Assembly: GCA_028284945.1 (NCBI GenBank)
Contig: JANQQJ010000028.1
Location: 124,001-188,000 of the forward strand
DNA length: 64,000 nucleotides
Source of the DNA: Alphaproteobacteria bacterium
Lineage (GTDB): Bacteria; Pseudomonadota; Alphaproteobacteria; SMXS01
Direction of reading: 5' to 3'
The notes under the pieces are model-generated. The model searched no databases. It saw only the letters and a program-made list of their open reading frames with translations, and had not been told where the DNA came from. Of this stretch, positions 17,805-44,534 are shown piece by piece (positions within the stretch are counted from its first letter, which is position 1; each line of letters opens with the position of its first letter). The position numbers and the translations under genes were made by a program.

Positions 17805-17824
17805 GAGTTTCTGGCGATTCAAAC

Positions 17825-17932
17825 GCCGTTCGCCCTGAGGAGCGAGCAACGAGAGCGTCTCGAAGGGTGAACGGTTCCAAACCCGCCCGCACTTCGAGAC
17901 GGCTGCTCTGCAGCCTCCTCAGCGCGAACGGG
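17825..17932. repeat. Type A intergenic palindromic repeat, copy 3
   Basis: Left arm GCCGTTCGCCCTGAGGAGC, CGTCTCGAAG, then CTTCGAGACG and CCTCCTCAGCGCGAACGG. It occupies almost the whole space between fno and cofE, which are on the same strand, so it may reduce read-through or act on mRNA stability. Confidence 0.8.
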
Positions 17933-17959
17933 TTTTAGGAAAGCGGAAATCATCTGGAA

Positions 17960-18631
17960 CTATGCAGCCTCGCCCGGGGTACCGGTGATGCGAATGCCCG
18001 ATCCGTTGATCTTGTACCGGCGGTTGATGGTGATGAGAATCGACGTCAGCGCCTCAGCCGCGGCCGAATTCGCAAGCGGTCCGGCGTGCCAGGCCTTCAG
18101 GCCGGCGTCTTCAACCAGCCCGACGACGATTTCGCGGGCATCCTTGTCATCCCCCGATACAAGCACGTCACAGGCGATTTCGTGGTCGCTGTTCAGATGT
18201 TCAGCGCCAATATTCTGGAATGCAGCGATCACCTTGACGTCTTCACCGACGAAATTTTGCGCCCGAACGGCGGCAGAGTCTTCTTCGGGGAGCTGGACCC
18301 GGCCCACCTTGGGCGGCATCAGCGGCACGGTTGCATCGATCAGGATTTTGCCCTGAACACCGTCCTTGATGGCTTCCAGCATCGGCTGCTGGTTTGAAAA
18401 CGGAACGGTCAGCGCAACAATTTCGCCGGCTGCCGCCGCTTCGCCGTTTTCCATGCCCGACAAGGACCCGCCGATTTCGGTCTGAAGCGCTTCTGCCGCT
18501 TCCTGAGCCCGGCCACCGTCACGCGAGCCTATGATCACATGGTGCCCGGCTTTGGCCCAACGGCGGGCAAGCCCCCCGCCCAGCGCACCGGTCGCTCCGA
18601 TAACAGCAATCGTCTTGGGTGAGTCAGTCAT
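17960..18631 (-). CDS. fno: NADPH:F420 oxidoreductase
   Basis: A 223-residue Fno/NpdG-type enzyme that passes hydride between NADPH and F420. The Rossmann start IAVIGATGALGGGLARRWAKAG, the NADP phosphate-binding GSRDGGRAQEAA, the motif VALTVPF and the F420-side block AFQNIGAEHL are all in the family order. It sits in the F420 locus, upstream of cofE-cofD on the same strand and divergent from the LLM oxidoreductase gene. It most likely supplies reduced F420 to that enzyme. Confidence 0.92.
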   Translation of the reverse strand: MTDSPKTIAVIGATGALGGGLARRWAKAGHHVIIGSRDGGRAQEAAEALQTEIGGSLSGMENGEAAAAGEIVALTVPFSNQQPMLEAIKDGVQGKILIDATVPLMPPKVGRVQLPEEDSAAVRAQNFVGEDVKVIAAFQNIGAEHLNSDHEIACDVLVSGDDKDAREIVVGLVEDAGLKAWHAGPLANSAAAEALTSILITINRRYKINGSGIRITGTPGEAA

Positions 18632-18779
18632 GGTTCAGGTGTTCCTTTGTTTTCGAATTTTGAGGGTGTGTAACATGGTTGCGAGCACTGGCCGCACCAA
18701 AAAAGATGTGCAAAGCTGCACGCCACTCTAGGGGGAGACCGGCGAAAGGCCGGCGCGACATTTTATCAGGAGAGACTTC

Positions 18780-19760
18780 ATGAAGGTTGGCTTCAATATG
18801 CCTCAGCTGACGGCCCATTCCAGTCAGCGGGCGGTACGGGAATTCGCGCTGCGGTGCGAGCAACTTGGTTACGATTCGCTTTGGGTTCAGGATCACTTTC
18901 TCTATCCGGAAAACCCGAACCAGAGCCATCCAGTGCATCAGTTTGCGCTGGGACCCGATAAAATCGTCCAATGGCCAGATGCCTATGAAGATATGTTGGC
19001 CCCGCTGGAAGCTTTGGCCTACGTGGCTGGCTGCACCGAGAACATCCGGCTGGGCACGTCGATCCTGGTGTTCGGCTATCACCGTCCGGTCACCCTTGCC
19101 AAACAGGTCGCAACCATCGACCAACTGTCCGGCGGACGGTTCGATCTGGGTCTGGGCCTGGGCTGGGCGACGGAAGAGTTTGCTCATATGGATACGCCGT
19201 TCGAAAAGCGCGGCGCCCGATGCACCGACTTCATCCGCGCCCTGCGCGCTGCGTGGCAGGACAATCCGACCGAATATGAGGGGCCGTTCTACAATTTCGC
19301 CAAAGGCTCGACTTCACCCAAACCCGCCCAGCAGGACTGGAACGGCAAACCCGGCGTGCCCGTTCTCGGCGCCTTCCTGAACGACGCCGGTTTCGACCGC
19401 GTGGCCGAGCTTTGTGACAAGTGGCACCCCGCCGGTCACCCGCCGGACTTGGCCATGATGCGCCTGGGTCAGATCAACCAGATCGCGCAGGAGAAATATG
19501 GCCGCGACCCGCTTGAGTGCGTGCTGCGGGTGTTTGCTGCGCCGAAGTTACCGGGTATTGCCGAAATCGGGGACCAGCTGATGCAGCCGAACTGGACTGG
19601 CACCGTCGACGACATGATGCCGCATTTGAAAGAGGCCAAAGCCGCCGGGTGCAGCGAAATCGTAATCGATTGCAGCTTCATGCCTGAGATCACCAGCGAC
19701 GATCACTGGATTTCACAGCCGGACTTCTTCCTGCCGCTGCTGGAAGAAGCCAAGAGCTAA
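18780..19760 (+). CDS. LLM class F420-dependent oxidoreductase
   Basis: A 326-residue TIM-barrel protein of the luciferase-like monooxygenase class. Typical blocks are the MKVGFNMPQ start, YDSLWVQDHF, NIRLGTSILVFGYHRPVTLAKQ, LSGGRFDLGLGLGW and a C-terminal region ending PLLEEAKS. In LLM enzymes that use F420 the cofactor sits in the barrel; the flanking fno and cofC strongly favour F420 over FMN. AGGAGAG precedes the ATG. The substrate is unknown; relatives act on sugars, alcohols, imines or nitro-aromatics. Confidence 0.9.
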   Translation: MKVGFNMPQLTAHSSQRAVREFALRCEQLGYDSLWVQDHFLYPENPNQSHPVHQFALGPDKIVQWPDAYEDMLAPLEALAYVAGCTENIRLGTSILVFGYHRPVTLAKQVATIDQLSGGRFDLGLGLGWATEEFAHMDTPFEKRGARCTDFIRALRAAWQDNPTEYEGPFYNFAKGSTSPKPAQQDWNGKPGVPVLGAFLNDAGFDRVAELCDKWHPAGHPPDLAMMRLGQINQIAQEKYGRDPLECVLRVFAAPKLPGIAEIGDQLMQPNWTGTVDDMMPHLKEAKAAGCSEIVIDCSFMPEITSDDHWISQPDFFLPLLEEAKS

Positions 19761-19783
19761 CGCTAGCCGGTGACCCTTTCAAA

Positions 19784-19890
19784 TGTCATTGCGAGGAGCC
19801 TTGAGCATGTCGAAAGGCGACGAAGCAATCCAGAATTTCTGCGGTCGTGAACAATCTGGATTGCTTCGCCCTTACGGGCTCGCAATGACA
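19784..19890. repeat. Type B intergenic palindromic repeat, copy 1
   Basis: Arms TGTCATTGCGAGGAGCC at the left and GGGCTCGCAATGACA at the right, with an inner pair GAAGCAATCCAGA and TCTGGATTGCTTC. It forms a long cruciform-like hairpin between the LLM gene and cofC. The same type recurs at 44.5, 50.5 and 61.1 kb. Confidence 0.82.
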
Positions 19891-19934
19891 GGCGAGGCTG
19901 TGGCTAAAGCCGGATATTGCAGAAGGCCCATCGC

Positions 19935-20606
19935 ATGCCGCTGAGCCCGAACATCTGGGCGCTTGTCCCGGTCAAACGTCTGACCGGAGCAAAGAAGCGC
20001 CTCGCCGACGTGCTCTCGGAAGACGAGCGCACGGCACTGTCGCACGCCATGTTGGAAGATGTGCTCAGTGCGTTGCGCAGCGCCAATGGCCTTGCGGGCA
20101 CTGCCGTTGTGACCGCCGACGAAGAAGCCGTTGCCGTCGCACGGCAATACGGCGCTGCTACCATCGCTGACCGGGCAAGTGGCCTCAACGAGGCCCTGAC
20201 CGAGGCATCAAATGTTTTGGCGACCTATGCCGCGAAGGGAGTGTTGATCGTCCATGCCGACCTGCCGCTAGCGTCATCGTCGGAGATTACAGCTGTGGTC
20301 GAACATGCCGGGCCTGCACCATCGGCCACCCTGGTGCCGGCGCGCGCCGATGGTGGGTCCAATGCCATGCTGCTCAAGCCGCCAAACACCATTGAATTGG
20401 CCTATGGCGAGGGCAGTTTCGCCAAACACCGGACGGCAGCCCATCAAGCTGGCCTGGACGTCAGGGCATTGGATTCGGCCGGTTTGGGCCTAGATATCGA
20501 TAGGCCGGAAGATCTTGAGGCGCTGCTGGCGGACCCTACGCCCTGTAAAACGCGGGATTATTTGCTGGCGAGCGGGATCGCAGACCGGCTAAAACGGTCA
20601 GCCTGA
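19935..20606 (+). CDS. cofC: Nucleotidyltransferase CofC, F420 biosynthesis
   Basis: A 223-residue CofC/FbiD protein that activates 2-phospholactate, PEP or 3-phosphoglycerate with GTP. The nucleotidyltransferase start is WALVPVKRLTGAKKRLADVLS; the metal-site motif VLIVHADLPLASS and the LVPARADGGSNAMLL block match the family. The ATG at 19935 has AGAAGG upstream. The stop is 19 bases before fbiC, so cofC-fbiC form an operon, perhaps extending to the NUDIX gene. Confidence 0.93.
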   Translation: MPLSPNIWALVPVKRLTGAKKRLADVLSEDERTALSHAMLEDVLSALRSANGLAGTAVVTADEEAVAVARQYGAATIADRASGLNEALTEASNVLATYAAKGVLIVHADLPLASSSEITAVVEHAGPAPSATLVPARADGGSNAMLLKPPNTIELAYGEGSFAKHRTAAHQAGLDVRALDSAGLGLDIDRPEDLEALLADPTPCKTRDYLLASGIADRLKRSA

Positions 20607-20625
20607 AGGGAAAAGGACCAAAATC

Positions 20626-23040
20626 GTGGACGCTTTGCTGAAACAGGTGGAGGCTGGGCACCGGCTTTCCCACGAGGAAGCCCTTGGGCTGGCCGCCGAA
20701 GACGATACCGCCCGCCTGATGCAGACCGCTGCCGTACTGCGCGATCAGGGGTTTCGCAACGTCATCACCTTTTCCAAGAAGGTGTTCATTCCCCTAACCC
20801 ATCTGTGCCGAGACGTTTGTCATTACTGCACCTTCGCTAAACCGCCGAAGAAGGGCGAGCAGGCCTATATGACGCCGGATCAGGTGCTGGAGATCGCCCG
20901 CCAGGGCGCTGCCGCAGGCTGTAAAGAGGCCCTGTTCACGCTGGGTGACAAGCCAGAGCTGCGATACAAGGCCGCGCGCGACGGCCTGACCGAACTGGGC
21001 TATGAAACCACCCTCGATTATTTGGCGGCCATGGCCAAGCTGGTTTATGAGGAAACCGGCCTGTTCCCGCATCTCAATCCCGGCCTGATGACGCCGGAAG
21101 ATTTTGCGATGCTGCGGCCGCTCGCCCCCTCCATGGGGATCATGCTGGAGAGTGCGGCACCCCGCCTTTCGGAAAAAGGCATGCCGCACTATGGCAGCCC
21201 TGACAAACACCCCAAGGTGCGGCTCGAATGCCTGCGGCTCGCGGGTGAAGCACAGGTACCGTTTACATCCGGTATTCTGATCGGCATCGGTGAGACTCGC
21301 GAAGAGCGCGTCGAGAGCATGCTGGCGCTGCGCGACATCCAGAATGACCACGGGCATATCCAGGAAATCATTATCCAGAATTTCCGCGCCAAGCCCGACA
21401 CCAAAATGAAGGACGCGCCGGAACCGGACATGAACGAGCTGCAGTGGACCCTGGCGGTCGCTCGCATCGTCTTCGGTCCGGAAATGAGCATTCAGGTACC
21501 GCCCAATCTAAGCCCGGGTGATCTGGCACCACTGGTTGATGCGGGCATCAATGACTGGGGCGGCGTCTCACCGATCACGCCCGATTTCGTCAATCCCGAG
21601 GCCCCCTGGCCGCATCTGGACAAGCTGGCTGCTGAAACCGCTGCTGCCGGAAAAGTGTTGCAAGAGCGGCTGACCGTCTATCCCGCCTATGCCAAGGACC
21701 CGGAGCGCTGGCTGGATGAAGGGATGCGCACGCCAATCATTCAGGCGATCGATGCGGAGGGCTTTGCCCGCACCGAAGACTGGTCACCGGGCGCGGAAAT
21801 CGACCCGCCGCAGCATACGCTGGACCTGGTCAACGCGCCGAACCCAGAGGCCATTGAGCCAGCGTTACAAGCGATCATCGACCGGGGTGTCGCCGGAGAG
21901 CGCCTAAACGAATCCGAAATCGTCCGTTTGTTCCAGGCGCGCGGGCCCGAATTCACCGCCGTGTGCCACGCAGCCGACAAACTACGGCATGACACGGTCG
22001 GCGATACGGTGTCCTATGTCGTCAACCGCAACATCAACTACACCAATGTCTGTTACTTCAAATGCCAGTTTTGCGCCTTTTCCAAGGGCAAGCTGACGGA
22101 GAACCTGCGCGGCAAACCCTATGTGCTGGGTATGGATGAAATCCAGCGCCGGGTGCAGGAAGCCTGGTCGCGCGGGGCCACCGAAGTCTGCATGCAGGGT
22201 GGCATTCACCCGTCCTATACCGGCCAGACCTATATCGACATCACCAAGGCGGTAAAAGAGGTCGCGCCCGACATCCATGTGCACGCCTTTACCCCGCTGG
22301 AAGTCTGGCAAGGCGCTGAGACGCTGGGTATCTCGATCCGCGACTTTTTGATCCAGCTGAAAGAGGCCGGCATGGGCACCCTCCCCGGCACCGCGGCGGA
22401 AATCCTGGACGATGAAATCCGCGAGATCATCTGCCACGACAAGATCAACACGGCCCAGTGGCTGGAGGTTATGGAAACAGCGCATTCGCTGGGCATCCGC
22501 ACCACATCCACCGTCATGTATGGCCATGTCGAGAGCCCGATCAATTGGGCGCGACACCTGCTTAATCTGCGGGACCTGCAGGCCAAGACCGGCGGCTTTA
22601 CCGAGTTCGTCCCCCTGCCCTTTGTCCATATGGAAGCACCGATCTATCTGAAAGGCCTGGCGCGTAAGGGCCCGACCTTCCGCGAGGCGGTGCTGATGCA
22701 TGCGGTCGCGCGCCTCGCGCTCAACCCGCTGATCACGAACATCCAGGCAAGCTGGGTGAAGATGGGGCCGGACGGGGTGACCGCCTGCCTCAATGCCGGC
22801 TGTAATGATCTGGGCGGGACCTTGATGAACGAGACCATCACCCGGTCCGCCGGCGCCAGCCACGGCCAGGAGATGGAACCCTACCGGATGGAAGAGATCA
22901 TCCGCGCCAACGGCCGGAACCCGCGCCAGCGCTCGACGCCCTATGGCGAGGTGTCGGAAGAACGCACCCGCCAGTCCTTCCAGGCCGCCCCGCTTGAGGA
23001 CATCAGGTTCACCCCCGCCAAGGAATATGAGCGGGCTTAG
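20626..23040 (+). CDS. fbiC: FO synthase, fused CofG-CofH
   Basis: An 804-residue bifunctional radical-SAM enzyme that joins tyrosine to 5-amino-6-ribitylaminouracil to make 7,8-didemethyl-8-hydroxy-5-deazariboflavin (FO), the F420 chromophore. Both radical-SAM CxxxCxxC motifs are intact: C61/C65/C68 (CRDVCHYCTF) in the CofG half and C476/C480/C483 (CYFKCQFCAF) in the CofH half. The fusion order is that of actinobacterial FbiC, whereas archaea have separate proteins. The start is GTG with a GGGAAAAGG ribosome site. No frameshift or degeneration is seen. Confidence 0.97.
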   Translation: MDALLKQVEAGHRLSHEEALGLAAEDDTARLMQTAAVLRDQGFRNVITFSKKVFIPLTHLCRDVCHYCTFAKPPKKGEQAYMTPDQVLEIARQGAAAGCKEALFTLGDKPELRYKAARDGLTELGYETTLDYLAAMAKLVYEETGLFPHLNPGLMTPEDFAMLRPLAPSMGIMLESAAPRLSEKGMPHYGSPDKHPKVRLECLRLAGEAQVPFTSGILIGIGETREERVESMLALRDIQNDHGHIQEIIIQNFRAKPDTKMKDAPEPDMNELQWTLAVARIVFGPEMSIQVPPNLSPGDLAPLVDAGINDWGGVSPITPDFVNPEAPWPHLDKLAAETAAAGKVLQERLTVYPAYAKDPERWLDEGMRTPIIQAIDAEGFARTEDWSPGAEIDPPQHTLDLVNAPNPEAIEPALQAIIDRGVAGERLNESEIVRLFQARGPEFTAVCHAADKLRHDTVGDTVSYVVNRNINYTNVCYFKCQFCAFSKGKLTENLRGKPYVLGMDEIQRRVQEAWSRGATEVCMQGGIHPSYTGQTYIDITKAVKEVAPDIHVHAFTPLEVWQGAETLGISIRDFLIQLKEAGMGTLPGTAAEILDDEIREIICHDKINTAQWLEVMETAHSLGIRTTSTVMYGHVESPINWARHLLNLRDLQAKTGGFTEFVPLPFVHMEAPIYLKGLARKGPTFREAVLMHAVARLALNPLITNIQASWVKMGPDGVTACLNAGCNDLGGTLMNETITRSAGASHGQEMEPYRMEEIIRANGRNPRQRSTPYGEVSEERTRQSFQAAPLEDIRFTPAKEYERA

Positions 23041-26294: not shown

Positions 26295-29200
26295 TTAGTG
26301 GAAGAATCTGCCCTTGTCGATAAAGGTCTCCGCTGGCTCACCGTGCCGGGTAGTCAGGCTGGCCAGCCAGCCATTCAGTTCGAACACCTTGTCGACGATA
26401 ACGTGGATCACCCCGTCGACCTTCTCCACCTTGCCCTTGCAGGCCATGAAGCGGGCAGTGAGCGTGGCGCGGCGATACTGTTCGAATACGCCGGGGAAGA
26501 TCACCAGATTGGCCACGCCCGTTTCATCTTCCAGGGTAATGAACATCACCTTCTTCGCCGTACCTGGCCGTTGCCGTGCCAACACCAGCCCGGCAATGGT
26601 GATGCGGCTGTCATTGGCGATGGTCAACAGGTCGGCGGCCGGGCGGGTACCGCGCTTTGCAAGCTGGCCACGCAGCAACGCCACCGGATGTTCTTTTAAA
26701 GACAGGCCCGCGGTCTGATAGTCCGCCACCACATGTTCGCCCAGATGCATGGCGGGCAGATGCGGTTCGGTCTCGATCTTTTGTCCAAAATCCAGCGCTT
26801 CGAACAACGGCAGCGGTTTGGTTTCCGTCAACTTCTTCACCGCCCAGGCGGCCTGGCGCCGGTCGAGGCCCAGTGATTGGAACGCATCGGCCTCGGCCAG
26901 GCGCACCAGCGTCGACGGCATCAGGCCCGCGCGCTGCCACAAATCGAGCGGCGAGCGGTAGCCGGAGCCTCGGTGATGAAGCAGCTTTTCAGCCTCTTCC
27001 TTTTTCAGACCCTTGATCTGGCGCAGGCCCAGGCGTAACGCGCATATCCCACTTGCGGCGGGCTCCAATGTGCTGTCCCAATTGGAGCGGTTGACATCGA
27101 CCGACCTGATCTCACCACCATGGTCGCCCAGATCGCGGACCAGTTGCGCCGGAGCATAGAATCCCATCGGCTGGCTGTTCAGCAACCCAGCGGTGAACGC
27201 TTCCGGGTAATGGCATTTCAACCAGGACGACACATAAGCCAGCAGCGCAAAGCTGGCCGCATGGCTTTCGGGAAAGCCATAATCGCCAAAGCCCTCGATC
27301 TGGCGGAAGCAACGCTCGGCAAAGTCCCGCTCATAACCCTTGGCCACCATGCCTTCGACCATCTTGTCCCGGAACTTGTGGATAGTGCCCATATTGCGGA
27401 AGCTGGCCATGGCCCGGCGCAGAGAATCCGCCTCGGCCGGGGTGAACCCGGCAGCGACGATAGCGATCTTCATCGCCTGTTCTTGAAACAGTGGCACACC
27501 ATAGGTTTTTTCCAAAACCTGACGCAGTTCTTCTGAGGGGTACTCGATCTTCTCGATACCCTGCCGCCGCCGCAGATAGGGATGCACCATGTCGCCCTGG
27601 GTCGGCCCGGGCCGCACAATCGCCACCTCGATCACCAAATCATAGAAGGTGGCCGGCTTGAGGCGGGGCAGCATGGCCATCTGCGCCCGGCTTTCGATCT
27701 GGAAGACGCCCACCGTGTCGCCCGCCTGGATCATCTCGTAAACCTTGGAATCCTCTTGCGGAATATTGGCCAGGGTCAGCGGCCGGCCATAATGGTTGGC
27801 AATGAACTCAAAACTTTTTTGGATGGCGGTCAGCATGCCGAGCGCCAGCACATCAACCTTGACCAGCCCCAACACATCCAGATCGTCCTTGTTCCACTCG
27901 ATCACCGTGCGATCTTCCATCGCCGCGTTTTCGATCGGCACCACCTCGCAAAGCGGTCCGCGCGAGATCACGAACCCGCCTGTATGCTGCGACAGATGAC
28001 GCGGGAACCCGCGCAGCTGATCGGCAATTTCAAGCGCCAGCCGCAGCGTGCGGTCGTTGGGGTCGAAGCCTTCTTCCTGCGCCAGGAATTCATCGATCGG
28101 GCCGGACCACCACGTCACTGTCCGCGTGAGCTTATCGATCACATCGGTGCTGAGCCCCATCGCCTTACCCACATCGCGGATTGCGCCCTTGGTGCGGTAG
28201 GTAACGGTGGTCGCCGTCAGGCCTGCCCGGTCGCGGCCATATTTCTGATAGATATACTGAATGACCTCTTCGCGGCGCTCATGCTCGAAATCCACATCGA
28301 TGTCAGGCGGCTCGTTGCGTTCAGCAGACAAAAACCTCTCGAACAGCAGATCGATCGTTGTCGGGTCGACCGACGTGATCCCGATACAAAAACACACCGC
28401 CGAATTCGCCGCTGACCCCCGCCCCTGGCACAGAATCCCCTCCCCTCGGGCGAACCGAACCACGTCGTAAACGGTGAGGAAGTAGGGCGCATAATCGAGC
28501 TGGGCGATCAGCGCTAATTCATGTTCAACAGTTTTGCGCACTTTGTCGGGGATGCCGTCTGGATAGCGCTCCGCCGCACCGATCCAGGTAACGTGTTCCA
28601 ACTCCTCCTGCGGCGTGCGGCCTTCATGGGTGATCTCGTTAGGATATTCATAGCGCAACTCGTCCAGGGAAAACGGGCACTGGTCCATAATCTCCTGGGT
28701 GCGCGCCACCGCTTCCGGATAATCACGGAACAGGCGTGCCATTTCATCAGGCGCCTTTAGATGCCGCTCGGCATTGGCCGCCAGCCGCCAGCCCGCCGTC
28801 TCGATGGTACAGCGCTCGCGAATACAGGTCAGCACATCCTGCATCACCCGGCGATCCGGCACGTGGTAATGCACATCACCCGTGGCCACCATCGGCACGC
28901 CTGCCTTCTGTGCCAGATCGGCCAATTGCCGCAGCCGTTTGGCATCGTCACCACGATAATAATGGGTCGCCGCTAGATAAAGTGGGGCCTGTAGACCCTT
29001 ACGATAAGCGGCCAGCTTGGCGGCAAAATCTTCCGTCAGCACCACTGGCGGAATGACGACGAATAGGTTGTGATCGGCAGCCCCGTAAACGTCACCGCGA
29101 TAGAGGATGCAGTCGCCCTTTTCCGCCCGGCGGCGGCCGGTGGTGATGAGCCGCGACAACCGCGCATAGCCTGCCCGGTTCTTGGGAAAGCACAGCAGGC

Positions 29201-29423
29201 TGGGCCCATCCTTCAGGTCCAGCCGGGCACCGGCCAACAGGCGGATGCCCGCTTCTTTCGCTGCGCCATGGGCCCGCACCACACCGGCCAGCGTATTGCG
29301 GTCCGTCACCGCAATCGCGCTGTGGCCCAGGGCGGCCGCCTGCAGCGCCATCTCCTGCGGGTGGGAGCCGCCGCGCAGGAAGCTGAAATTGGTGGTGACC
29401 TGAAGTTCGGCATAGGCGGTCAT
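26295..29423 (-). CDS. dnaE2: Error-prone DNA polymerase III alpha subunit DnaE2
   Basis: A 1042-residue C-family polymerase that, with ImuB, carries out mutagenic translesion synthesis after DNA damage. The N-terminal PHP domain starts AELQVTTNFSFLRGGSHP. The polymerase aspartates lie in PPDIDVDFEHERREEVI near residue 375, and the OB domain near residue 960 (RITIAGLVLARQRPG). Its length fits DnaE2 and is shorter than replicative DnaE1 (about 1160). ATG 29423 is chosen; an in-frame GTG lies 12 bases upstream. It follows imuA-imuB on the same strand, but a 230-base spacer with a palindromic repeat separates it from imuB. Confidence 0.95.
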   Translation of the reverse strand: MTAYAELQVTTNFSFLRGGSHPQEMALQAAALGHSAIAVTDRNTLAGVVRAHGAAKEAGIRLLAGARLDLKDGPSLLCFPKNRAGYARLSRLITTGRRRAEKGDCILYRGDVYGAADHNLFVVIPPVVLTEDFAAKLAAYRKGLQAPLYLAATHYYRGDDAKRLRQLADLAQKAGVPMVATGDVHYHVPDRRVMQDVLTCIRERCTIETAGWRLAANAERHLKAPDEMARLFRDYPEAVARTQEIMDQCPFSLDELRYEYPNEITHEGRTPQEELEHVTWIGAAERYPDGIPDKVRKTVEHELALIAQLDYAPYFLTVYDVVRFARGEGILCQGRGSAANSAVCFCIGITSVDPTTIDLLFERFLSAERNEPPDIDVDFEHERREEVIQYIYQKYGRDRAGLTATTVTYRTKGAIRDVGKAMGLSTDVIDKLTRTVTWWSGPIDEFLAQEEGFDPNDRTLRLALEIADQLRGFPRHLSQHTGGFVISRGPLCEVVPIENAAMEDRTVIEWNKDDLDVLGLVKVDVLALGMLTAIQKSFEFIANHYGRPLTLANIPQEDSKVYEMIQAGDTVGVFQIESRAQMAMLPRLKPATFYDLVIEVAIVRPGPTQGDMVHPYLRRRQGIEKIEYPSEELRQVLEKTYGVPLFQEQAMKIAIVAAGFTPAEADSLRRAMASFRNMGTIHKFRDKMVEGMVAKGYERDFAERCFRQIEGFGDYGFPESHAASFALLAYVSSWLKCHYPEAFTAGLLNSQPMGFYAPAQLVRDLGDHGGEIRSVDVNRSNWDSTLEPAASGICALRLGLRQIKGLKKEEAEKLLHHRGSGYRSPLDLWQRAGLMPSTLVRLAEADAFQSLGLDRRQAAWAVKKLTETKPLPLFEALDFGQKIETEPHLPAMHLGEHVVADYQTAGLSLKEHPVALLRGQLAKRGTRPAADLLTIANDSRITIAGLVLARQRPGTAKKVMFITLEDETGVANLVIFPGVFEQYRRATLTARFMACKGKVEKVDGVIHVIVDKVFELNGWLASLTTRHGEPAETFIDKGRFFH

Positions 29424-29452
29424 GGGGTGACGCACTTAACCAGCAAGGAAGC

Positions 29453-29630
29453 CCGTTCGCCCTGAGGAGGGTTGAGCATCGCGAAACCCGTCTCGAAGCC
29501 TGTCCAGAGCGACGCCGCAGGCGGCGTCGAAGGGGGTCCCTGCGAACGGGCGTCAACACCAACAAAGCCATTCGCAAGAAGCCTTCGAGACGCCCATCGC
29601 TCCGCGTTGGGCTCCTCAGGCCGAACGGCT
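29453..29630. repeat. Type A intergenic palindromic repeat, copy 4 (expanded)
   Basis: A 178-base version with arms CCGTTCGCCCTGAGGAGG and CTCCTCAGGCCGAACGG, CGTCTCGAAG and CTTCGAGACG, plus extra inner hairpins (GACGCCGCAGGCGGCGTC). It occupies the spacer between imuB and dnaE2, two genes of a cassette that are usually close together. Confidence 0.8.
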
Positions 29631-29655
29631 TTGTTAAAATGCCTGCAAAAACTAC

Positions 29656-31176
29656 TCACCCAAACACCCCGTGCAGATACCAGTTGGGCGAACGTTCGGG
29701 ATCGTAAAGCCCCTCGCGGTAAAGCCAATAGCGGCAGCCTTCCTCATCCTCGACCAGATAATAATCCCGTGGCTGTTGGTCCTTCAGCCACCATTCGCCT
29801 TCCAGCCGCTCAGGCCCATCGGCGGCTTTGACCCGAAACACCCGGCGGTGCCAGCGGAACAGCACGGGCGGGTCGTCGGGCACCGGTGCGGTGACCTCAA
29901 CCGGTTCGGGATGGGTGAGCAGACGCAAAGGCCGATCCCGCCCTGCAGGCCAACGCGCGCCTTCGGGATCGCCTTCAAAGGGCGCCGCCTTCGCGACAGC
30001 CCGTTCCGGCAACCAGCTCTGCCGGGGCCGGGGCCGGGCGATCCGGCCAAATCCGAACCGGTTGCCCAACCGGTCCATCAACTGGGCCAGACCGTCTTCA
30101 TGGCCAGCGCCCTTCTGCTGCCAGTTGGCCTGGACCGCTTTCAAGGGTTCAGCCTGAGTGGCGGCCAGCACCATCACCTCAATCCCAAAGCCGGGATCGA
30201 TCTCGTCCAGCCGCTCTGCAAACAAGCGAAACAATGGCTGGGGCCAGCGCGACGGACGGCTGGTACCCAGGCCGATCCGGCCAACCGTGCTATCAACCCG
30301 GTGACAGGCCAAAGTCAAATAGCGCGCACCGTCCCCTGCCTTTGCCAGGCTGGAGCACAATGTCTCGAGCAATCCTTCCAGCGCGGCTTCCACATCCTCC
30401 TGCGCGCCAATCGGATCAACAAAGGCACAGCGTGCGTGATAGGGCGGCACCGGCTGCAACGGCGAAATCGGTTCGTCTGCCACGCCCAGCGCCTGATCCA
30501 ACCGCTCTACAGGTGAAGCATCAAACCGTTCGGTCAGCGCCCGCCGTTCCAGCGGGTAAAGCGCGCCCACGGTACGCAACCCAAAACCATGCAACGCATC
30601 AACGGTGTTTTCGCTCAGCCGCAAGGCCGCGACCGGCAAATCCTTCAACGCCTCCATCGCATCACTGACCGTTTTGCTGGACGGCTGAATATAGACTGAC
30701 TGGTCTATATAATGGGCGAAAGCCCAGGCAACGCCTGGAGTATCGGCGATACCAATACGCGCGGTAAGCCCAAAGGTAGACAGCCGGTCCAGCATATCCT
30801 GCGCCATCGATTCTTCGCCGCCAAACAGATGCGCGCAGCCGGAAATATCCAGGAAAAGCGTATGCCCTTCTCCCACTGAGGCCCAGGGCGTGTACCGCGT
30901 CGCCCACCCGGCCAGTTTTTTCAGCGCGGCACGATCGGCCCGAGGCTGGGCGAACCGGGTTTCCAGATCCGGCGCCACCGCACGGGCATCGGCCAGCACC
31001 ATGCCCGGACGCAGGCCCGCCCGTCCGGCCCGTGGGCTGACCGCCTTTAAAACCAACCGGCCGCGCGCCTCTTCAATCAGCACCAGCGCCTGCCGGGCGA
31101 GCGCTTTATCACGGCGGATCAGCCGTTCGGCTGGAAACCATGGCAGCCAGACAGCAGCAATGCGGCGGTTCTTCAT
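29656..31176 (-). CDS. imuB: ImuB, catalytically inactive Y-family polymerase-like protein
   Basis: A 506-residue Y-family polymerase homologue acting as the hub of the mutasome, binding the beta clamp, ImuA and DnaE2. The start MKNRRIAAVWLPWFPAERL lacks the D.D.FF motif of active Y polymerases, as expected for ImuB. The HhH-like region near residue 190 is present. The C-terminal tail contains a Trp/Tyr-rich block (RDYYLVEDEEGCRYWLYREG). The ATG at 31176 is four bases after the imuA stop and follows GGGGTAGGG. Confidence 0.93.
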   Translation of the reverse strand: MKNRRIAAVWLPWFPAERLIRRDKALARQALVLIEEARGRLVLKAVSPRAGRAGLRPGMVLADARAVAPDLETRFAQPRADRAALKKLAGWATRYTPWASVGEGHTLFLDISGCAHLFGGEESMAQDMLDRLSTFGLTARIGIADTPGVAWAFAHYIDQSVYIQPSSKTVSDAMEALKDLPVAALRLSENTVDALHGFGLRTVGALYPLERRALTERFDASPVERLDQALGVADEPISPLQPVPPYHARCAFVDPIGAQEDVEAALEGLLETLCSSLAKAGDGARYLTLACHRVDSTVGRIGLGTSRPSRWPQPLFRLFAERLDEIDPGFGIEVMVLAATQAEPLKAVQANWQQKGAGHEDGLAQLMDRLGNRFGFGRIARPRPRQSWLPERAVAKAAPFEGDPEGARWPAGRDRPLRLLTHPEPVEVTAPVPDDPPVLFRWHRRVFRVKAADGPERLEGEWWLKDQQPRDYYLVEDEEGCRYWLYREGLYDPERSPNWYLHGVFG

Positions 31177-31180
31177 CGCC

Positions 31181-31924
31181 CTACCCCGCCAACGAGAACG
31201 CGGCCTGGCGCGGCGCGGGTTCAAGCGCCGACCAGCCGTCCTGATCCCAGATCACACTCCATGAGCCCGGACGCCCGGCCCGGCACCGCAACAGATCGAC
31301 ATGCCAGGCAGGCATGCCGACACTTTGAAGGCCATGATGGGGTAGACCGGTGGGCAGGCTGGGGGCGGCCCGCACCTGCCAGCGGGTCAGCGCGGTGCTG
31401 GCCCCCACATCTGATCCTTCGCTAAGCAGAAACCCTGTCACCCCGGCGGTTTCAGCCGCCAGCTGCACCCGGCGGCTGGCGGTGAAATCGGCCTGACGAA
31501 TTTCGGCGACAACGGCACAGAGCGCCGTACAGCGCAACGCCTCTTCCATCGCCCACAGCATGTCGGCCTGTTTGGCAATCCGCGAGACCGTCAGCAGCGG
31601 GCCGGGCCGCAGGCCAAAACGCATCAGACCCGGCAGATAAAGGTCCTCCCCGCGCGACAGCCAGAGAACGGGCCTACCGTCTTCCGCCGCCAGCCGCGCC
31701 AGTATCGCCGCGCAGAACCCGGTGGCCGCCCCGCTACCAGACGCCGCGCCCGGCCCACGCACTTCATGCACCCCACCCAGTGGCAAGCCGCCCTCGGGCA
31801 AGGCCTCATCAATGGCGGGGATGCCAAGCGGCAATACCGGATGACCGGCGGCTTCGCCAACCCCTTCAATCTGACGGATCTGATCACGCAAACCCGCCAG
31901 CGCTCGCTGGTTACGGATCTTCAT
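31181..31924 (-). CDS. imuA: ImuA, RecA/SulA-related mutasome protein
   Basis: A 247-residue ImuA protein, the RecA-like partner of ImuB in damage-induced mutagenesis. Family features are the LPLGIPAIDEALPEGGLPLGG start, VLWLSRGEDLYLPGLMRFGL and the GFLLSEGSD block near residue 170. The Walker A motif is degenerate. It is the first gene of the imuA-imuB-dnaE2 cassette and has a LexA box 23 bases upstream of its ATG. Confidence 0.92.
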   Translation of the reverse strand: MKIRNQRALAGLRDQIRQIEGVGEAAGHPVLPLGIPAIDEALPEGGLPLGGVHEVRGPGAASGSGAATGFCAAILARLAAEDGRPVLWLSRGEDLYLPGLMRFGLRPGPLLTVSRIAKQADMLWAMEEALRCTALCAVVAEIRQADFTASRRVQLAAETAGVTGFLLSEGSDVGASTALTRWQVRAAPSLPTGLPHHGLQSVGMPAWHVDLLRCRAGRPGSWSVIWDQDGWSALEPAPRQAAFSLAG

Positions 31925-38128: not shown

Positions 38129-38485
38129 CTAACCCTCAGGCAGTTCGCCGACAGGGCGAATTTCGATCGTCCCAGTCTGTGCGCTGGGGATCCTGCCCGC
38201 CCAAGCCTTGGCATCTTCAATGTTCTTACATTCAAGAATGTAGTAGCCGCCCAGATGCTCGCGCGTTTCAGCAAAAGGGCCATCGACGCTGACCACATCG
38301 CCATCGCGGCATTGAACAGCAACAGGCGCAGGGTCATCGCGCAGCGGGTTCGCGTCAATCAGCTTGCCTGCTGCAGTCACATCGCGGGAATAGGCCTGGA
38401 AGTCGCGGGTCAACGCCTGCCAGTCATCCTCGGTTCTGGCACCACGAACATCCGGGTCTTCGAAGATCAGAAACATGAATTTCAT
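38129..38485 (-). CDS. YciI/DGPF family protein (copy 1)
   Basis: A 118-residue protein of the YciI-like, ferredoxin-fold DGPF family: KFMFLIFEDPDVRG at the start and VDGPFAETREHLGGYYILE in the middle, with a conserved EIRPVGELPEG end. It is the last of three tandem paralogues. In many bacteria DGPF genes adjoin ECF42 sigma-factor genes and form part of their target set. An ECF42-type gene lies 4.6 kb upstream on the same strand. AGGAGC precedes the ATG. Confidence 0.88.
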   Translation of the reverse strand: MKFMFLIFEDPDVRGARTEDDWQALTRDFQAYSRDVTAAGKLIDANPLRDDPAPVAVQCRDGDVVSVDGPFAETREHLGGYYILECKNIEDAKAWAGRIPSAQTGTIEIRPVGELPEG

Positions 38486-38494
38486 CGCTCGCTC

Positions 38495-38851
38495 CTATCC
38501 GGTGGGGATTTCGCCAAGCGGCCGCACCTCGATCGTACCGAGCCGGGCGCTCGGGATCTTCGCGGCCCAGATTTTAGCTTCTTCCAGATCCTCACAATCG
38601 AGCAGGTAATAGCCACAAAGCTGTTCTTTGGTTTCAGCAAAGGGCCCGTCGACCGTCAGCACCCCACCGTCCCGTGCCTGAACAGCGGCTGTTCCCTTAC
38701 TGTTATCGAGCGGACTGCCCCCATGCATTTTGCCCGCCGCAGCCGCTTCATCGGCAAAGGCGTTGTGTTCGCGGCCCATTTGCCGCCAGTCATCATCGCT
38801 CATCGTCGCCATCAGCGCGGGATCTTCGAAAATCAGGAACATATATTTCAT
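38495..38851 (-). CDS. YciI/DGPF family protein (copy 2)
   Basis: A 118-residue paralogue with KYMFLIFEDPALMA, then LTVDGPFAETKEQLCGYYLLD and IEVRPLGEIPTG. The catalytic role of the family is unsettled; YciI has a His-Asp pair in the fold. It overlaps the third paralogue by four bases and leads into copy 1 after nine bases, so all three are translated from one message. AAGGAAA precedes the ATG. Confidence 0.88.
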   Translation of the reverse strand: MKYMFLIFEDPALMATMSDDDWRQMGREHNAFADEAAAAGKMHGGSPLDNSKGTAAVQARDGGVLTVDGPFAETKEQLCGYYLLDCEDLEEAKIWAAKIPSARLGTIEVRPLGEIPTG

Positions 38852-39210
38852 CGGTTTTCCTTCGAGTGATTGGCGACCGGCCGGACTTCAATCGTACCGG
38901 TTTGAGCAGCGGGAATCTGCGCTGCCCACTCAAGCGCCTGATCGAGATTGTCACAGTCGAGCATATAGAATCCGGCGAGCTGTTCCTTGGTCTCGGCAAA
39001 GGGTCCGTCAGTGGTTACCGACTGACCCGCGCGAACCCTGACACTGGTTGCCACGTCGATCATTTCGAGTGGGCGCGCCGCAACCACTTGGCCTGACGCG
39101 ACGACATTGTTGGTGAATTCGTCGAAGGCGTCATAGCGCGCTGCTAGTTCATCGGGTGACATGGTTTTGCGGACGGCCTCGTCCTCATAGATCAATAGAA
39201 GATATTCCAT
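38848..39210 (-). CDS. YciI/DGPF family protein (copy 3)
   Basis: A 120-residue paralogue with EYLLLIYEDEAVRK, TTDGPFAETKEQLAGFYMLD and TIEVRPVANHSK. It is the first of the three in transcription order and starts four bases after the MAPEG stop, with a GGGGTAGGG ribosome site that lies inside the end of that gene. The C-terminal sequence is the most divergent of the three. Confidence 0.88.
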   Translation of the reverse strand: MEYLLLIYEDEAVRKTMSPDELAARYDAFDEFTNNVVASGQVVAARPLEMIDVATSVRVRAGQSVTTDGPFAETKEQLAGFYMLDCDNLDQALEWAAQIPAAQTGTIEVRPVANHSKENR

Positions 39211-40370: not shown

Positions 40371-40553
40371 ACCCTTGCCTCAAGATTCTACCGTAATTGC
40401 CGAAACGACGGCTCCACCTTTAGCCACACCTGCAGGTATATGCACGAAGCCGAGAATACAGTGGGTGGTAAACGCGATATTCCCGGCGACGGGACGTCCA
40501 GTGTCAATTGCAAGAACGACTGGTTCGGCGTTTGTCAGTGCACCAAGGGCTGA
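40371..40553 (+). pseudogene. 5'-truncated relic of a fourth six-cysteine secreted protein gene
   Basis: In frame from about 40371 to TGA 40551-40553 the sequence reads HTCRYMHEAENTVGGKRDIP, then SSVNCKNDWFGVCQCTKG and stop. This lines up with the last 45-55 residues of the three intact genes downstream (CVYRHEAEGTVGGSRDVHGD, then TCKNDWAGVCQCKKD). Homology fades upstream of about 40390. The signal peptide and the first cysteine block (NCSPW) are missing and no start codon fits, so it is a gene remnant. Its 5' end abuts the promoter region of the opposite-strand DUF2461 gene. Confidence 0.75.
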
Positions 40554-40673
40554 TACATTACGGCGTCAGCCTAAGGAAAAAACCGAAAATACTACCTTGG
40601 ATTGATTGATATAGGGTACGTCGCTACTAAATTTCTATTTCAGCAGTGCTGATGACATCGCGTGGAGGGCATG

Positions 40674-41081
40674 ATGGCGAGAGTCTTCTTACTAGCAGCG
40701 TTTAGTCTGAGTATGACGGTCTCCGCACACGCCATCGACAGCAGCGGTGCCGTTGTCCTGAACTCTGTAACGATCCATAATAACAATTGCAGTCCATGGG
40801 GTTCCGATCACGTGCGGGTCAACGTCTACGATCCTCTCGATGACCGCAACTGGCTTGAGAAATGCACATCGACGACCATCAGTCTCAAACACGGCGCAAC
40901 AACGACACTCACGCTCAATGCGTCGATCACAAGCCCGGAGGGAGATAGCACAAAAGCCTGTGTATACAGGCATGAGGCCGAAGGGACAGTAGGCGGCAGC
41001 AGAGACGTCCACGGCGACGCCGTATCGCATGTCACCTGCAAGAACGACTGGGCTGGCGTTTGCCAGTGCAAGAAGGATTAG
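40674..41081 (+). CDS. Secreted six-cysteine protein, tandem family member 1
   Basis: A 135-residue protein with a signal peptide (MARVFLLAAFSLSMTVSAHA). The mature part has six cysteines: NNNCSPWGSDHVRV, WLEKCTS, KACVYRHEAEG, HVTCKNDW and GVCQC. SLKHGATTTLTLNAS suggests a beta-rich core. The end KNDWAGVCQCKKD is nearly constant in the family. All three paralogues have GGAG exactly six bases before the chosen ATG, which fixes the start at 40674 rather than the ATG at 40671 or the GTG at 40662. The family is unknown to me. Confidence 0.8.
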   Translation: MARVFLLAAFSLSMTVSAHAIDSSGAVVLNSVTIHNNNCSPWGSDHVRVNVYDPLDDRNWLEKCTSTTISLKHGATTTLTLNASITSPEGDSTKACVYRHEAEGTVGGSRDVHGDAVSHVTCKNDWAGVCQCKKD

Positions 41082-41104
41082 GTGAAGGCGCCATGGAGAA
41101 GATG

Positions 41105-41530
41105 ATGCAGAAGTTTATCGTTGGTTTGGCGTTCTCCTTGGGATTGACCACCCCGGCGCACGCCATCGATGCTAGCGGCGCTGAAGTTCTTACTTTCGTC
41201 AACGTCCACAATACAAATTGCAGCCCTTGGGGGCAGGACCACGTGGTCGTCAATATTTGGGACCCGGACCAACCTGGCTCGATCACGGAACCGAACCAGT
41301 GCACACATACTAAAGTTGCCCTCAAACACAACGAGACAAAAACAGTCCTGCTGAAGGGGCGCGTCGAGGGAACCGTCCCGGATGGCGGTGCCCATTACAG
41401 CCATAACTGCGTCTACAAGCACGAGGCGGACGGCACGGCTGGCGGTGCACGCGACGTTCACGGCGATCAGCAGTCGGGCGTGACGTGCCGCAATGACTGG
41501 ATTGGCGTCTGCCAATGCACCAAGGATTAG
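41105..41530 (+). CDS. Secreted six-cysteine protein, tandem family member 2
   Basis: A 141-residue paralogue with signal peptide MQKFIVGLAFSLGLTTPAHA. It keeps all six cysteines (NTNCSPWGQDHVVV, PNQCTHTKVALKH, HNCVYKHEADG, VTCRNDW, GVCQC). The DVHGDQQSGVTC block matches DVHGDAVSHVTC of member 1. It starts 23 bases after member 1, with GGAG six bases upstream of the ATG. ATG codons at 41093 and 41102 are in frame but fit the family pattern less well. The loop after cysteine two is longer than in member 1. Confidence 0.8.
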   Translation: MQKFIVGLAFSLGLTTPAHAIDASGAEVLTFVNVHNTNCSPWGQDHVVVNIWDPDQPGSITEPNQCTHTKVALKHNETKTVLLKGRVEGTVPDGGAHYSHNCVYKHEADGTAGGARDVHGDQQSGVTCRNDWIGVCQCTKD

Positions 41531-41552
41531 GTGGACATCTGTGGAGAGCACC

Positions 41553-41948
41553 ATGCAAAGACTACTTCTGGCATTTCTATTTGTATTCAGCGTGGCGGCA
41601 ACTGCCCATGCTGGTTCGTTGACCATTCACAATAACAACTGCAGCCCCTGGCTGAAGGACCATGTCAGGGTTCATGTGTATGGCGGCAATCCGCCGGGCG
41701 ACCAGTATCCCGGCACGTGTACAGATACATGGGTGTCGCTGAAGCACGGCGAAACGAAAACTATTTCGCTGACCGGTCGGCTGGAATACTTCTCGCAAGC
41801 CGACAACGTGTCATACGCCTATGACTGCAAGTACACCCACGAAGCCGAGGGCACCGTCATGGGCGACAGCGACATTGACGGCCGGGAAGACTCCCACGTG
41901 ACCTGCAAGAACGATTGGGCTGGTGTATGCCAGTGCAAAAAGGACTGA
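41553..41948 (+). CDS. Secreted six-cysteine protein, tandem family member 3
   Basis: A 131-residue paralogue with signal peptide MQRLLLAFLFVFSVAATAHA. It lacks the ID.SGAVVL stretch that follows the signal peptide in members 1 and 2, so its mature form begins directly with the strand SLTIHNNNCSPW. The six cysteines and the C-terminal CKNDWAGVCQCKKD are intact. GGAG lies six bases before the ATG. The three genes run head to tail with 22-23-base spacers and are surely one operon. An exported role, perhaps in adhesion, defence or inhibition, is open. Confidence 0.8.
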   Translation: MQRLLLAFLFVFSVAATAHAGSLTIHNNNCSPWLKDHVRVHVYGGNPPGDQYPGTCTDTWVSLKHGETKTISLTGRLEYFSQADNVSYAYDCKYTHEAEGTVMGDSDIDGREDSHVTCKNDWAGVCQCKKD

Positions 41949-43072: not shown

Positions 43073-44317
43073 CTAACTAACCTCAAGATCAGAAATCTTT
43101 CGGTCGATATGCCGCCGTTCCGCCGGGTTTTGGGCTAGCGCCGCCGCCGCTCGATAGGCTTCGATGGCCTCGGACGGACGTTCCGCTTTCTCCAACAGCG
43201 CACCCTGAGTCGAAAAAAACAGATGGTAGGACTTCATCTCCGGCATGTCCTGAATTTGGTCCAGTAGCGTCAGGCCTGCCTCTGGCCCCGATGCCATGCC
43301 ATGCGCCACAGCTTTGTTAAGCGCGACAACGGGTGTGGGCAGAAAGCGCTCGAGGACATCATAGAGCGCGGCAATCTGCAGCCAGTCGGTGTCCTCAGGC
43401 GTGGCCGCTTCACAATGCAACGCGGCAATCGCTGCCTGAACCTGATAGGGCCCGGCGTGTTTTAGCTTCAATGCGGCTTCGGCCAGCGCCTCACCTTCAG
43501 CAATCGCCTCCCGGTCCCAAAGCGACCGGTCCTGATCGTCCAGCGGAATGAGGTTTCCATCCTCCCCCACACGGGCTTCAGCGCGGGCATTCTGCAGCAT
43601 CAACAAAGCCAGCAGCCCCATCACTTCCGGCTCTTCACCGAACAAATCACGCAGAATGCCTGCCAGCCGGATCGCTTGCGCGCACAGTTCGCGGCGAATG
43701 AGATCGTCGCCCGACGTTGCCGCATAGCCCTCATTAAAGATCAGATAGACCACCAGCAGCACTGCATCGAGCCGTTCCGGCAAAGCCTTGGCATCTGGAA
43801 TTTCATAGGGGATGCCCGCGGTTCTGATCTTCTTTTTGGCTCGCGTCAGCCGCTGCTCCATGGTCTTGGGCGCAACCAGAAAGGCGCGGGCTATTTCCTC
43901 GACGGTGAAGTCGGCCACGGTTTTGAGAGTGAGCGCAAGCTTGGCCTCCAGCGCCAAAGCCGGATGGCAGCATGTAAAGATCAGCCGCAGCATGTCGTCC
44001 CGGAAGGTGGCCACCTGCATAAAGTCATCTTCATCGGGCACGTGCTTCTCCTCCGGCAACCCGTCGAGGATTTCGGCTTCTTTCTTGCTGCGGCGGAACA
44101 TGTCGATGGCGCGGTTACGGCCCGCCGTCACCAACCACGCGGCGGGATTGTCCGGCACGCCGCGTTCGGCCCAGACGACGACCGCACGGGCCAGCGCATC
44201 CTGCAGCACGTCTTCAGCCAGGTCGAAATCACGCAGCAGACGAATAAGGGTTGCCCGCGCCTTGGGCCCCTCGTCCCGGAAAATGGCCGCCATATCGAAT
44301 GTGGGCATGACAGTCAT
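43073..44317 (-). CDS. ECF-family sigma factor, ECF42-type (DUF6596 tail)
   Basis: A 414-residue ECF sigma factor. Region 2 is DFDLAEDVLQDALARAVVVW through NPAAWLVTAGRNRAIDMFRR. Region 4 is TVADFTVEEIARAFLVAPKT then MEQRLTRAKKKIR. A C-terminal extension of about 220 residues (LPERLDAVLLVVYLIFNEGY, ALNKAVAHGMASGPEAGL) is the ECF42 hallmark and replaces an anti-sigma factor as regulatory part. ECF42 genes normally neighbour DGPF genes; here three DGPF genes lie 3.9-4.9 kb away on the same strand. No clear ribosome site precedes ATG 44317 or 44308. Confidence 0.9.
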   Translation of the reverse strand: MTVMPTFDMAAIFRDEGPKARATLIRLLRDFDLAEDVLQDALARAVVVWAERGVPDNPAAWLVTAGRNRAIDMFRRSKKEAEILDGLPEEKHVPDEDDFMQVATFRDDMLRLIFTCCHPALALEAKLALTLKTVADFTVEEIARAFLVAPKTMEQRLTRAKKKIRTAGIPYEIPDAKALPERLDAVLLVVYLIFNEGYAATSGDDLIRRELCAQAIRLAGILRDLFGEEPEVMGLLALLMLQNARAEARVGEDGNLIPLDDQDRSLWDREAIAEGEALAEAALKLKHAGPYQVQAAIAALHCEAATPEDTDWLQIAALYDVLERFLPTPVVALNKAVAHGMASGPEAGLTLLDQIQDMPEMKSYHLFFSTQGALLEKAERPSEAIEAYRAAAALAQNPAERRHIDRKISDLEVS

Positions 44318-44354
44318 ACTATCACGCGGCTGCGCCGCGTCTCCTTCTGTGCCA

Positions 44355-44419
44355 TCCCTCACCCCCGACCCAACCACCCGGAAAGGATACCCTTGGGGCG
44401 GTTGGGTCGGGGGAGTGGG
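44355..44419. repeat. Long G/C-rich inverted repeat upstream of the ECF gene
   Basis: Arms CCCTCACCCCCGACCCAACC (from 44356) and GGTTGGGTCGGGGGAGTGGG pair over 19 of 20 positions around a loop of about 25 bases. It is unlike the type A-C repeats. It lies in the leader of the ECF42-type gene and would form a strong hairpin in RNA. The rest of the 379-base gap (44318-44696) holds this element and the type B repeat at 44535; I see no gene. Confidence 0.7.
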
Positions 44420-44534
44420 ATGGGCCAAGCGCCCGTCCGGGCAAGAAGCTTCTTCAAATCCTCGTTTGCTGGACGAACGGGCTGCTATAGTGCCGACAAC
44501 GAATGCTGATTTTTGGCGCAAGTCTCTCCAGCGT

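What the first reader, a model, noticed from the sequence alone, without database searches (positions are those of the whole stretch)
40674..41948. Tandem array of three secreted six-cysteine proteins with no recognised family
Three adjacent genes encode short exported proteins with six invariant cysteines, a shared NCSPW..DHV.V block, a SLKH..T.T strand and an almost constant C-terminus (C.NDW.GVCQC.KD). Their loops differ. Fixed spacing of GGAG six bases before each ATG and 22-23-base spacers show recent tandem duplication. Conserved ends with variable loops suggest a disulfide-stabilised beta fold with changing binding surface. I know no annotated family with this pattern; an effector, inhibitor or surface role is inference.
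Basis: partly seen in the sequence, partly recalled or inferred. Interest (0 to 1): 0.78.

Follow-up and report, generated by a model that had tools for sequence, protein, structure and literature searches.

The report
Orphan family of secreted disulfide-stabilised beta-sandwiches
Three neighbouring genes, with four more intact relatives and one broken copy in the same genome, encode small exported six-cysteine proteins found in no other genome or library searched; they probably form a stable transthyretin-like beta-sandwich used as a binding scaffold, but what they bind is unknown.

Summary
In detail: three tandem genes (40674-41948) encode exported six-cysteine paralogues, 46-55% identical. 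The family is larger than reported: a 5'-truncated fourth copy lies at 40407-40553, a divergent three-gene array about 130 kb away on the same contig, and a lone member on another contig. All seven intact copies keep the six framework cysteines; two have eight, so the count is always even. No homologue was found in nine other genomes of the family, samples of the class and phylum, 84,980 species' contigs (close relatives only), viral contigs, phages or plasmids. Pfam, NCBIfam, PHROGs, PADLOC and PDB sequences give nothing. The predicted structure (pLDDT 81, pTM 0.72) is a beta-sandwich; its weak matches (HGSNAT luminal domain, PepT ectodomain, TssJ, AlgF, cytolysin domain 4) are of the class called 'transthyretin-like'. 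'Recent' duplication is wrong: synonymous sites are near or at saturation. Best reading: a lineage-restricted family of exported binding scaffolds with a conserved disulfide framework and variable loops; the ligand is unknown. A second, unrelated family of secreted six-cysteine proteins is also expanded in this genome. Interest moderate.

The parts
40407..40553 (+). 5'-truncated fourth copy: 48 C-terminal codons and TGA, DGSTFSHTCRYMHEAENTVGGKRDIPGDGTSSVNCKNDWFGVCQCTKG; 54-61% identical to the three intact copies over 46-48 residues; no start codon of its own, no signal peptide
40664..40667 (+). GGAG ribosome-binding site of gene 1
   Evidence: sequence
40674..41081 (+). Gene 1 (P0001), 135 aa, signal-like segment 40674-40733 (MARVFLLAAFSLSMTVSAHA), six cysteines
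41105..41530 (+). Gene 2 (P0002), 141 aa from ATG 41105 (145 aa from ATG 41093), signal-like segment 41105-41164, six cysteines
41553..41948 (+). Gene 3 (P0003), 131 aa, signal-like segment 41553-41612, six cysteines (C30, C56, C92, C118, C126, C128); protein modelled as a ten-strand beta-sandwich

Best explanation
A paralogous family (seven intact genes and one decayed copy in one genome), restricted as far as can be tested to this genus. It encodes small Sec-exported proteins that oxidise in the periplasm to three, sometimes four, disulfides and fold as a transthyretin-like beta-sandwich. The cysteines and the strand-end motifs (TIHN.NC, CT, C.Y.H.A.G, TC, C.C) form a constant framework. The beta2-beta3 loop (P0003 residues about 44-55) and the beta5-beta6 region (about 74-91) vary between copies. 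I propose that the proteins are extracytoplasmic binding modules (released, or free in the periplasm) that recognise a ligand through the variable loops, and that old tandem duplication with divergence gave a small repertoire of specificities. Shown: gene family, array structure, cysteine conservation, purifying selection, taxonomic restriction in the sets searched. Predicted: export, disulfides, fold. Inferred: that function is binding, and that the variable loops are the binding surface.
For: Seven intact members with the six framework cysteines invariant, in even numbers only (6, 6, 6, 8, 6, 8, 6). Signal-like N-termini in all, with no lipobox. AF2 model of P0003 from the seven-member alignment: pLDDT 81.4, pTM 0.72, ten strands. 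The lower-confidence model of the divergent paralogue P0005 has the matching strand order and both find the same structures: PepT2 ectodomain 5a9h Z 8.7/7.6, TssJ/SciN 3rx9 7.4/8.0, AlgF 6czt 7.3/6.4. HGSNAT luminal domain leads the Foldseek list at E 2.6e-3. PMC11357348 compares HGSNAT luminal domain with AlgF, PepT, TssJ and SPH structures and calls its fold 'transthyretin-like'. In TssJ one loop of that sandwich is the partner-binding element (PMC3213119). In plant PrsS, an SPH protein, loop residues are essential and proposed to contact the receptor (PMC13033167). Conserved positions are mainly cysteines and framework residues, with no evident catalytic set. Variable positions cluster.
Against: No Foldseek match reaches E 0.001, and a best Z of 7-9 is what models without known relatives often reach, so the fold assignment is tentative. 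Fold does not show function. The alignment is shallow (seven paralogues, no orthologues). pN/pS is below 1, so there is no sign of positive selection on the whole gene, and saturation prevents a loop-wise dN/dS test. Genomic neighbours give no functional link. Binding is not tested.
Confidence: 0.5

Rival explanations
1. Secreted antagonistic proteins: small stable toxins or membrane-active effectors against competing microbes or a eukaryotic host, diversified by duplication.
For: Exported, disulfide-rich, tandemly arrayed and lineage-restricted, as toxin and effector families often are. The predicted fold weakly matches domain 4 (membrane-binding) of cholesterol-dependent cytolysins, Z about 6-7. 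A second expanded secreted family lies next to a ricin-type lectin gene in the same genome.
Against: No recognisable immunity or self-protection gene accompanies the arrays. Only the sandwich is shared with cytolysins, not a pore-forming domain. No PADLOC or PHROGs match. Purifying rather than diversifying selection overall.
Confidence: 0.2
2. Periplasmic inhibitors of foreign hydrolases (lysozyme or protease inhibitors) that protect the cell; variable loops fit different enzymes.
For: Size, export and disulfide-stabilised beta fold are typical of bacterial lysozyme and protease inhibitors (general knowledge, not a tool result).
Against: No Pfam or NCBIfam inhibitor family matches at any level. 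No inhibitor appears among the structural neighbours listed.
Confidence: 0.12
3. Structural subunits of a surface layer, pilus or matrix built from several related sandwiches.
For: Weak structural matches to pilins, pilus chaperones and adhesin domains; several closely spaced paralogues in one apparent operon.
Against: No usher, chaperone, sortase or pilus genes recognised next to the array. Members are divergent and scattered over three loci.
Confidence: 0.08
4. Metal or redox protein: conserved His, Asp and Cys residues bind a metal instead of forming three disulfides.
For: His-rich motifs in the window array (DHV, LKH, Y.HEA, DVHG).
Against: Most of those His are absent from the second array and the lone member. 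The two members with extra cysteines have two extra each, as expected for disulfides.
Confidence: 0.05

Closest known systems
Plant SPH / S-protein family (Pfam PF05938, Self-incomp_S1; PDB 6g7g)
   Same: Small secreted multi-copy cysteine-containing beta-sandwich; loop residues essential in PrsS (PMC13033167). Appears in the Foldseek list (prob 0.44).
   Different: Four conserved cysteines instead of six; plant family; no sequence match here; poor superposition (rmsd 13 A).
TssJ/SciN (T6SS lipoprotein, PF12790)
   Same: Predicted transthyretin-like sandwich of similar size, Z 7-8 in two models.
   Different: TssJ is a lipoprotein of a T6SS; these proteins have no lipobox, the T6SS-SciN profile has no match in the genome, and they carry six conserved cysteines.
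HGSNAT luminal domain, PepT1/PepT2 ectodomain, AlgF
   Same: Best structural neighbours; of the class called 'transthyretin-like' in PMC11357348.
   Different: Domains of larger or unrelated proteins; 16% sequence identity or less; shared cysteine pattern not tested.
MAX effectors of fungi (concept only, PMC4624222)
   Same: Small secreted disulfide-stabilised beta-sandwich families expanded in a lineage.
   Different: Eukaryotic, one conserved disulfide; no relationship claimed.

Membership tests
Self-incomp_S1 / SPH (PF05938) | match to the family profile | tested here: not met
   No PF05938 hit at E up to 10 for any of seven proteins; no match in the whole genome at E up to 1
Self-incomp_S1 / SPH (PF05938) | four conserved cysteines | tested here: not met
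   Six framework cysteines invariant in all seven members; four in PrsS according to PMC13033167
Self-incomp_S1 / SPH (PF05938) | SPH15-like sandwich topology | tested here: inconclusive
   6g7g at Foldseek prob 0.44, E 0.16, rmsd 13 A; not among the listed VIA rows
TssJ/SciN (PF12790) | lipobox cysteine at the signal cleavage site | tested here: not met
   Signal-like segments end before ID, GS or D; the first cysteine lies well inside the mature part in all seven
TssJ/SciN (PF12790) | match to the family profile | tested here: not met
   No T6SS-SciN match in the genome at E up to 1; the control search rings in E. coli
TssJ/SciN (PF12790) | transthyretin-like sandwich | tested here: inconclusive
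   3rx9 Z 7.4 and 8.0, 4a1r Z 7.6 and 7.4, 3zhn Z 7.2 and 6.6 in two models; such Z is also reached without relationship
Any Pfam, NCBIfam, PHROGs or PADLOC family | profile match over the curated cut-off or E below 0.001 | tested here: not met
Second secreted six-cysteine family of the same genome (C10 array) | homology of the mature parts | tested here: not met
   hhalign probability 87.6 with signal peptides but 0.3 with mature parts only

The most novel reading that the evidence does not exclude
This genus carries a private repertoire of secreted disulfide-stabilised recognition proteins, at least two unrelated families in several tandem arrays totalling some 16 genes, diversified by duplication in the way eukaryotic small secreted cysteine-rich ligands are, and used for contact with other cells or a host.
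Probability: 0.2. Interest if true: 0.75.

Novelty: new variant of a known kind. Interest (0 to 1): 0.42.

Why it matters
It defines a new orphan family with a testable fold and shows that one bacterial genome has expanded at least two unrelated families of small secreted six-cysteine proteins. Such lineage-specific secretomes are well known in fungi and plants and little described in bacteria (my own knowledge; the one literature search made found no such bacterial case). If the proteins bind other cells or enzymes, the arrays would be a compact natural set of disulfide-locked binding scaffolds. If not, they remain a clear case of lineage-restricted gene family growth by tandem duplication.

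Tried and rejected
Sequence families: no Pfam, NCBIfam, PHROGs or PADLOC match; weak hits such as WDR55 (E 0.11) or DUF3761 (E 0.086) are chance. PDB by sequence: best E 0.85, a ferredoxin subunit and carbamoyl phosphate synthetase, chance. The phylum-wide hit G636 (E 0.006) lies in a 1082-residue frame and matches the same profile region as the carbamoyl phosphate synthetase chance hit, so it was set aside. The G007 hit (E 0.02) lies in a 669-residue frame and was set aside. Relationship to the C10 secreted family: suggested by hhalign, rejected once signal peptides were removed. Recent duplication: rejected by synonymous saturation. Synteny with relatives: neither flanking gene (DUF2461, FMN reductase-like) has a match at E below 1e-20 in the other genomes of the family, so an empty site could not be defined. 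Viral structure library: weak matches only (best E 3.2e-3), no family. A first comparison of the truncated copy used the wrong frame (its rows are void) and was redone. Literature search for bacterial lineage-specific secreted cysteine-rich arrays: nothing relevant. The organism was not identified.

Full report
1. The observation. The three ORFs are present as described: gene 1 at 40674-41081, gene 2 at 41105-41530 (upstream in-frame ATGs at 41093 and 41102 also exist) and gene 3 at 41553-41948. Each protein begins with a hydrophobic segment ending in AHA and has six cysteines in aligned positions. From gene 2 alone, genes 1 and 3 are found at E 1.5e-45 and 6.4e-34 in the six-frame genome. Nucleotide changes are biased to synonymous positions (pN/pS 0.37-0.47), which supports real coding genes under purifying selection.

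2. A 5'-truncated fourth copy lies directly upstream at 40407-40553. It keeps 48 C-terminal codons with four of the six cysteines and the constant end (NDWFGVCQCTKG) and is 54-61% identical to the intact copies. The same genome has a second array of three divergent members on the same contig about 130 kb away (G000:C23:33685-34944, minus; P0004-P0006) and a lone seventh member (G000:C2:50352-50741). The seven intact proteins share N, C, C, T, C, Y, A, G, T, C, C, C as invariant columns. Cysteine counts are 6, 6, 6, 8, 6, 8, 6: always even, as expected for disulfide-bonded exported proteins. Within the window array synonymous sites are near or at saturation (dS 2.4 to infinite), so the duplications are old, not recent.

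3. Distribution. No relative was found in the nine other genomes of the family (all that is held of the order), in 385 genomes of the class or 398 of the phylum, in a scan of 84,980 species' contigs for close relatives, in viral contigs, plasmids or phages. No other species of the same genus was available, so conservation of orthologues could not be tested. The genome is 99% complete with 0.5% contamination, members lie on two contigs, one of 221 kb, and base composition at the array (G+C 0.547 in its 2-kb bin) is only slightly below that of the rest of the window (0.550-0.641), so a contaminant contig is unlikely.

4. Fold. AlphaFold2 on P0003 with the seven-member alignment gives mean pLDDT 81.4 and pTM 0.72, ten strands, and only residues 1-15 of the signal segment below 50. 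The divergent P0005 gives a lower-confidence model (pLDDT 62) with the matching order of strands. Foldseek finds nothing at E below 0.001; the top match is the luminal domain of HGSNAT at E 2.6e-3. The structural aligner lists for both models PepT ectodomains (Z 8.7 and 7.6 for 5a9h), TssJ/SciN (7.4 and 8.0 for 3rx9), AlgF (7.3 and 6.4 for 6czt), HGSNAT, and domain 4 of cholesterol-dependent cytolysins. Such Z values can arise without relationship. What lends them some weight is that the same set appears for two models, and that the HGSNAT paper independently lists PepT, TssJ, SPH and AlgF as the nearest structures to the HGSNAT luminal domain and calls its fold 'transthyretin-like' (PMC11357348); [quoted passage not shown] I take the fold class as likely but not proven.

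5. Variation. In the window array, invariant columns cover the beta1 end and following turn (HN.NCSPW..DHV.V), the CT...LKH block, C.Y.HEA.GT and the C-terminal 18 residues, whereas residues about 44-55 and 74-91 of P0003 (the beta2-beta3 loop and the beta5-beta6 region) are free of invariant positions. The clustering is modest but unlikely by chance (171 of 20,000 permutations for the poorest 20-column stretch). No set of conserved residues looks catalytic (inference).

6. Context. Neighbours are ordinary: DUF2461, MAPEG and YCII proteins upstream on the other strand, an FMN-reductase/flavodoxin-like protein, a sigma-70-type factor with DUF6596 and a nitronate monooxygenase downstream. They point to no function. 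The more telling context is at the second array, which is flanked by a cysteine-bearing lipoprotein-like protein and by a member of a second, unrelated family of secreted six-cysteine proteins. That second family has a large tandem array on contig C10, a further member on C13, and no match in 142 other genomes searched. The two families are not detectably homologous in their mature parts. Together they suggest a lineage-specific secretome of small disulfide-bonded proteins.

7. Mechanism. Shown: family, arrays, cysteine pattern, purifying selection, restriction to this genome among those searched. Predicted: Sec export, disulfides, beta-sandwich. Inferred: binding through variable loops. In TssJ a loop on a transthyretin-like sandwich makes the contact with TssM (PMC3213119), and in plant PrsS several loop residues are essential (PMC13033167). 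These are analogies of working principle, not membership: SPH and TssJ profiles were tested and not met, the cysteine number differs from SPH, and the lipobox of TssJ is absent. Rivals (toxin or membrane-active effector, hydrolase inhibitor, structural subunit, metal protein) are less supported but not excluded.

8. Verdict. A genuine, previously unclassified orphan family with a probably known general fold. Interesting mainly as part of a larger lineage-specific repertoire; function unproven.

Noticed in passing
L026:1067-5995 (+) (G000:C10), L008:6867-7454 (-) (G000:C23), L036:7186-7770 (+) (G000:C13): A second, unrelated family of secreted proteins of about 150-190 aa with six cysteines: seven copies in a tandem array on C10, one beside the second array of the present family and one on C13; no match in 142 other genomes and no Pfam family.
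   Followed up: partly
L026:107-1039 (+) (G000:C10): Exported protein with a C-terminal ricin-type beta-trefoil lectin domain (PF00652, E 6.8e-13) immediately upstream of the C10 array.
   Followed up: no
L026:2275-3146 (+), L014:5865-6221 (+), L008:8963-9535 (-): Further small exported cysteine-containing proteins without a family, each next to members of one of the two families; the L008 one looks like a lipoprotein with two internal repeats around a C.C motif.
   Followed up: no
window 38129-39210 (-) and 43073-44521 (-): Three tandem YCII-like proteins (only the one at 38848-39210 tested) and a sigma factor carrying DUF6596 nearby, separated by the present array.
   Followed up: no
window 16099-23040: Genes that look like a coenzyme F420 biosynthesis cluster (CofD-, CofE-, CofC- and CofG/H-like) with a luciferase-like monooxygenase; recognised from the sequences by eye, not tested.
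   Followed up: no
window 26295-31924 (-): Looks like a mutagenic-repair cassette (DnaE2-, ImuB- and ImuA-like); by eye, not tested.
   Followed up: no
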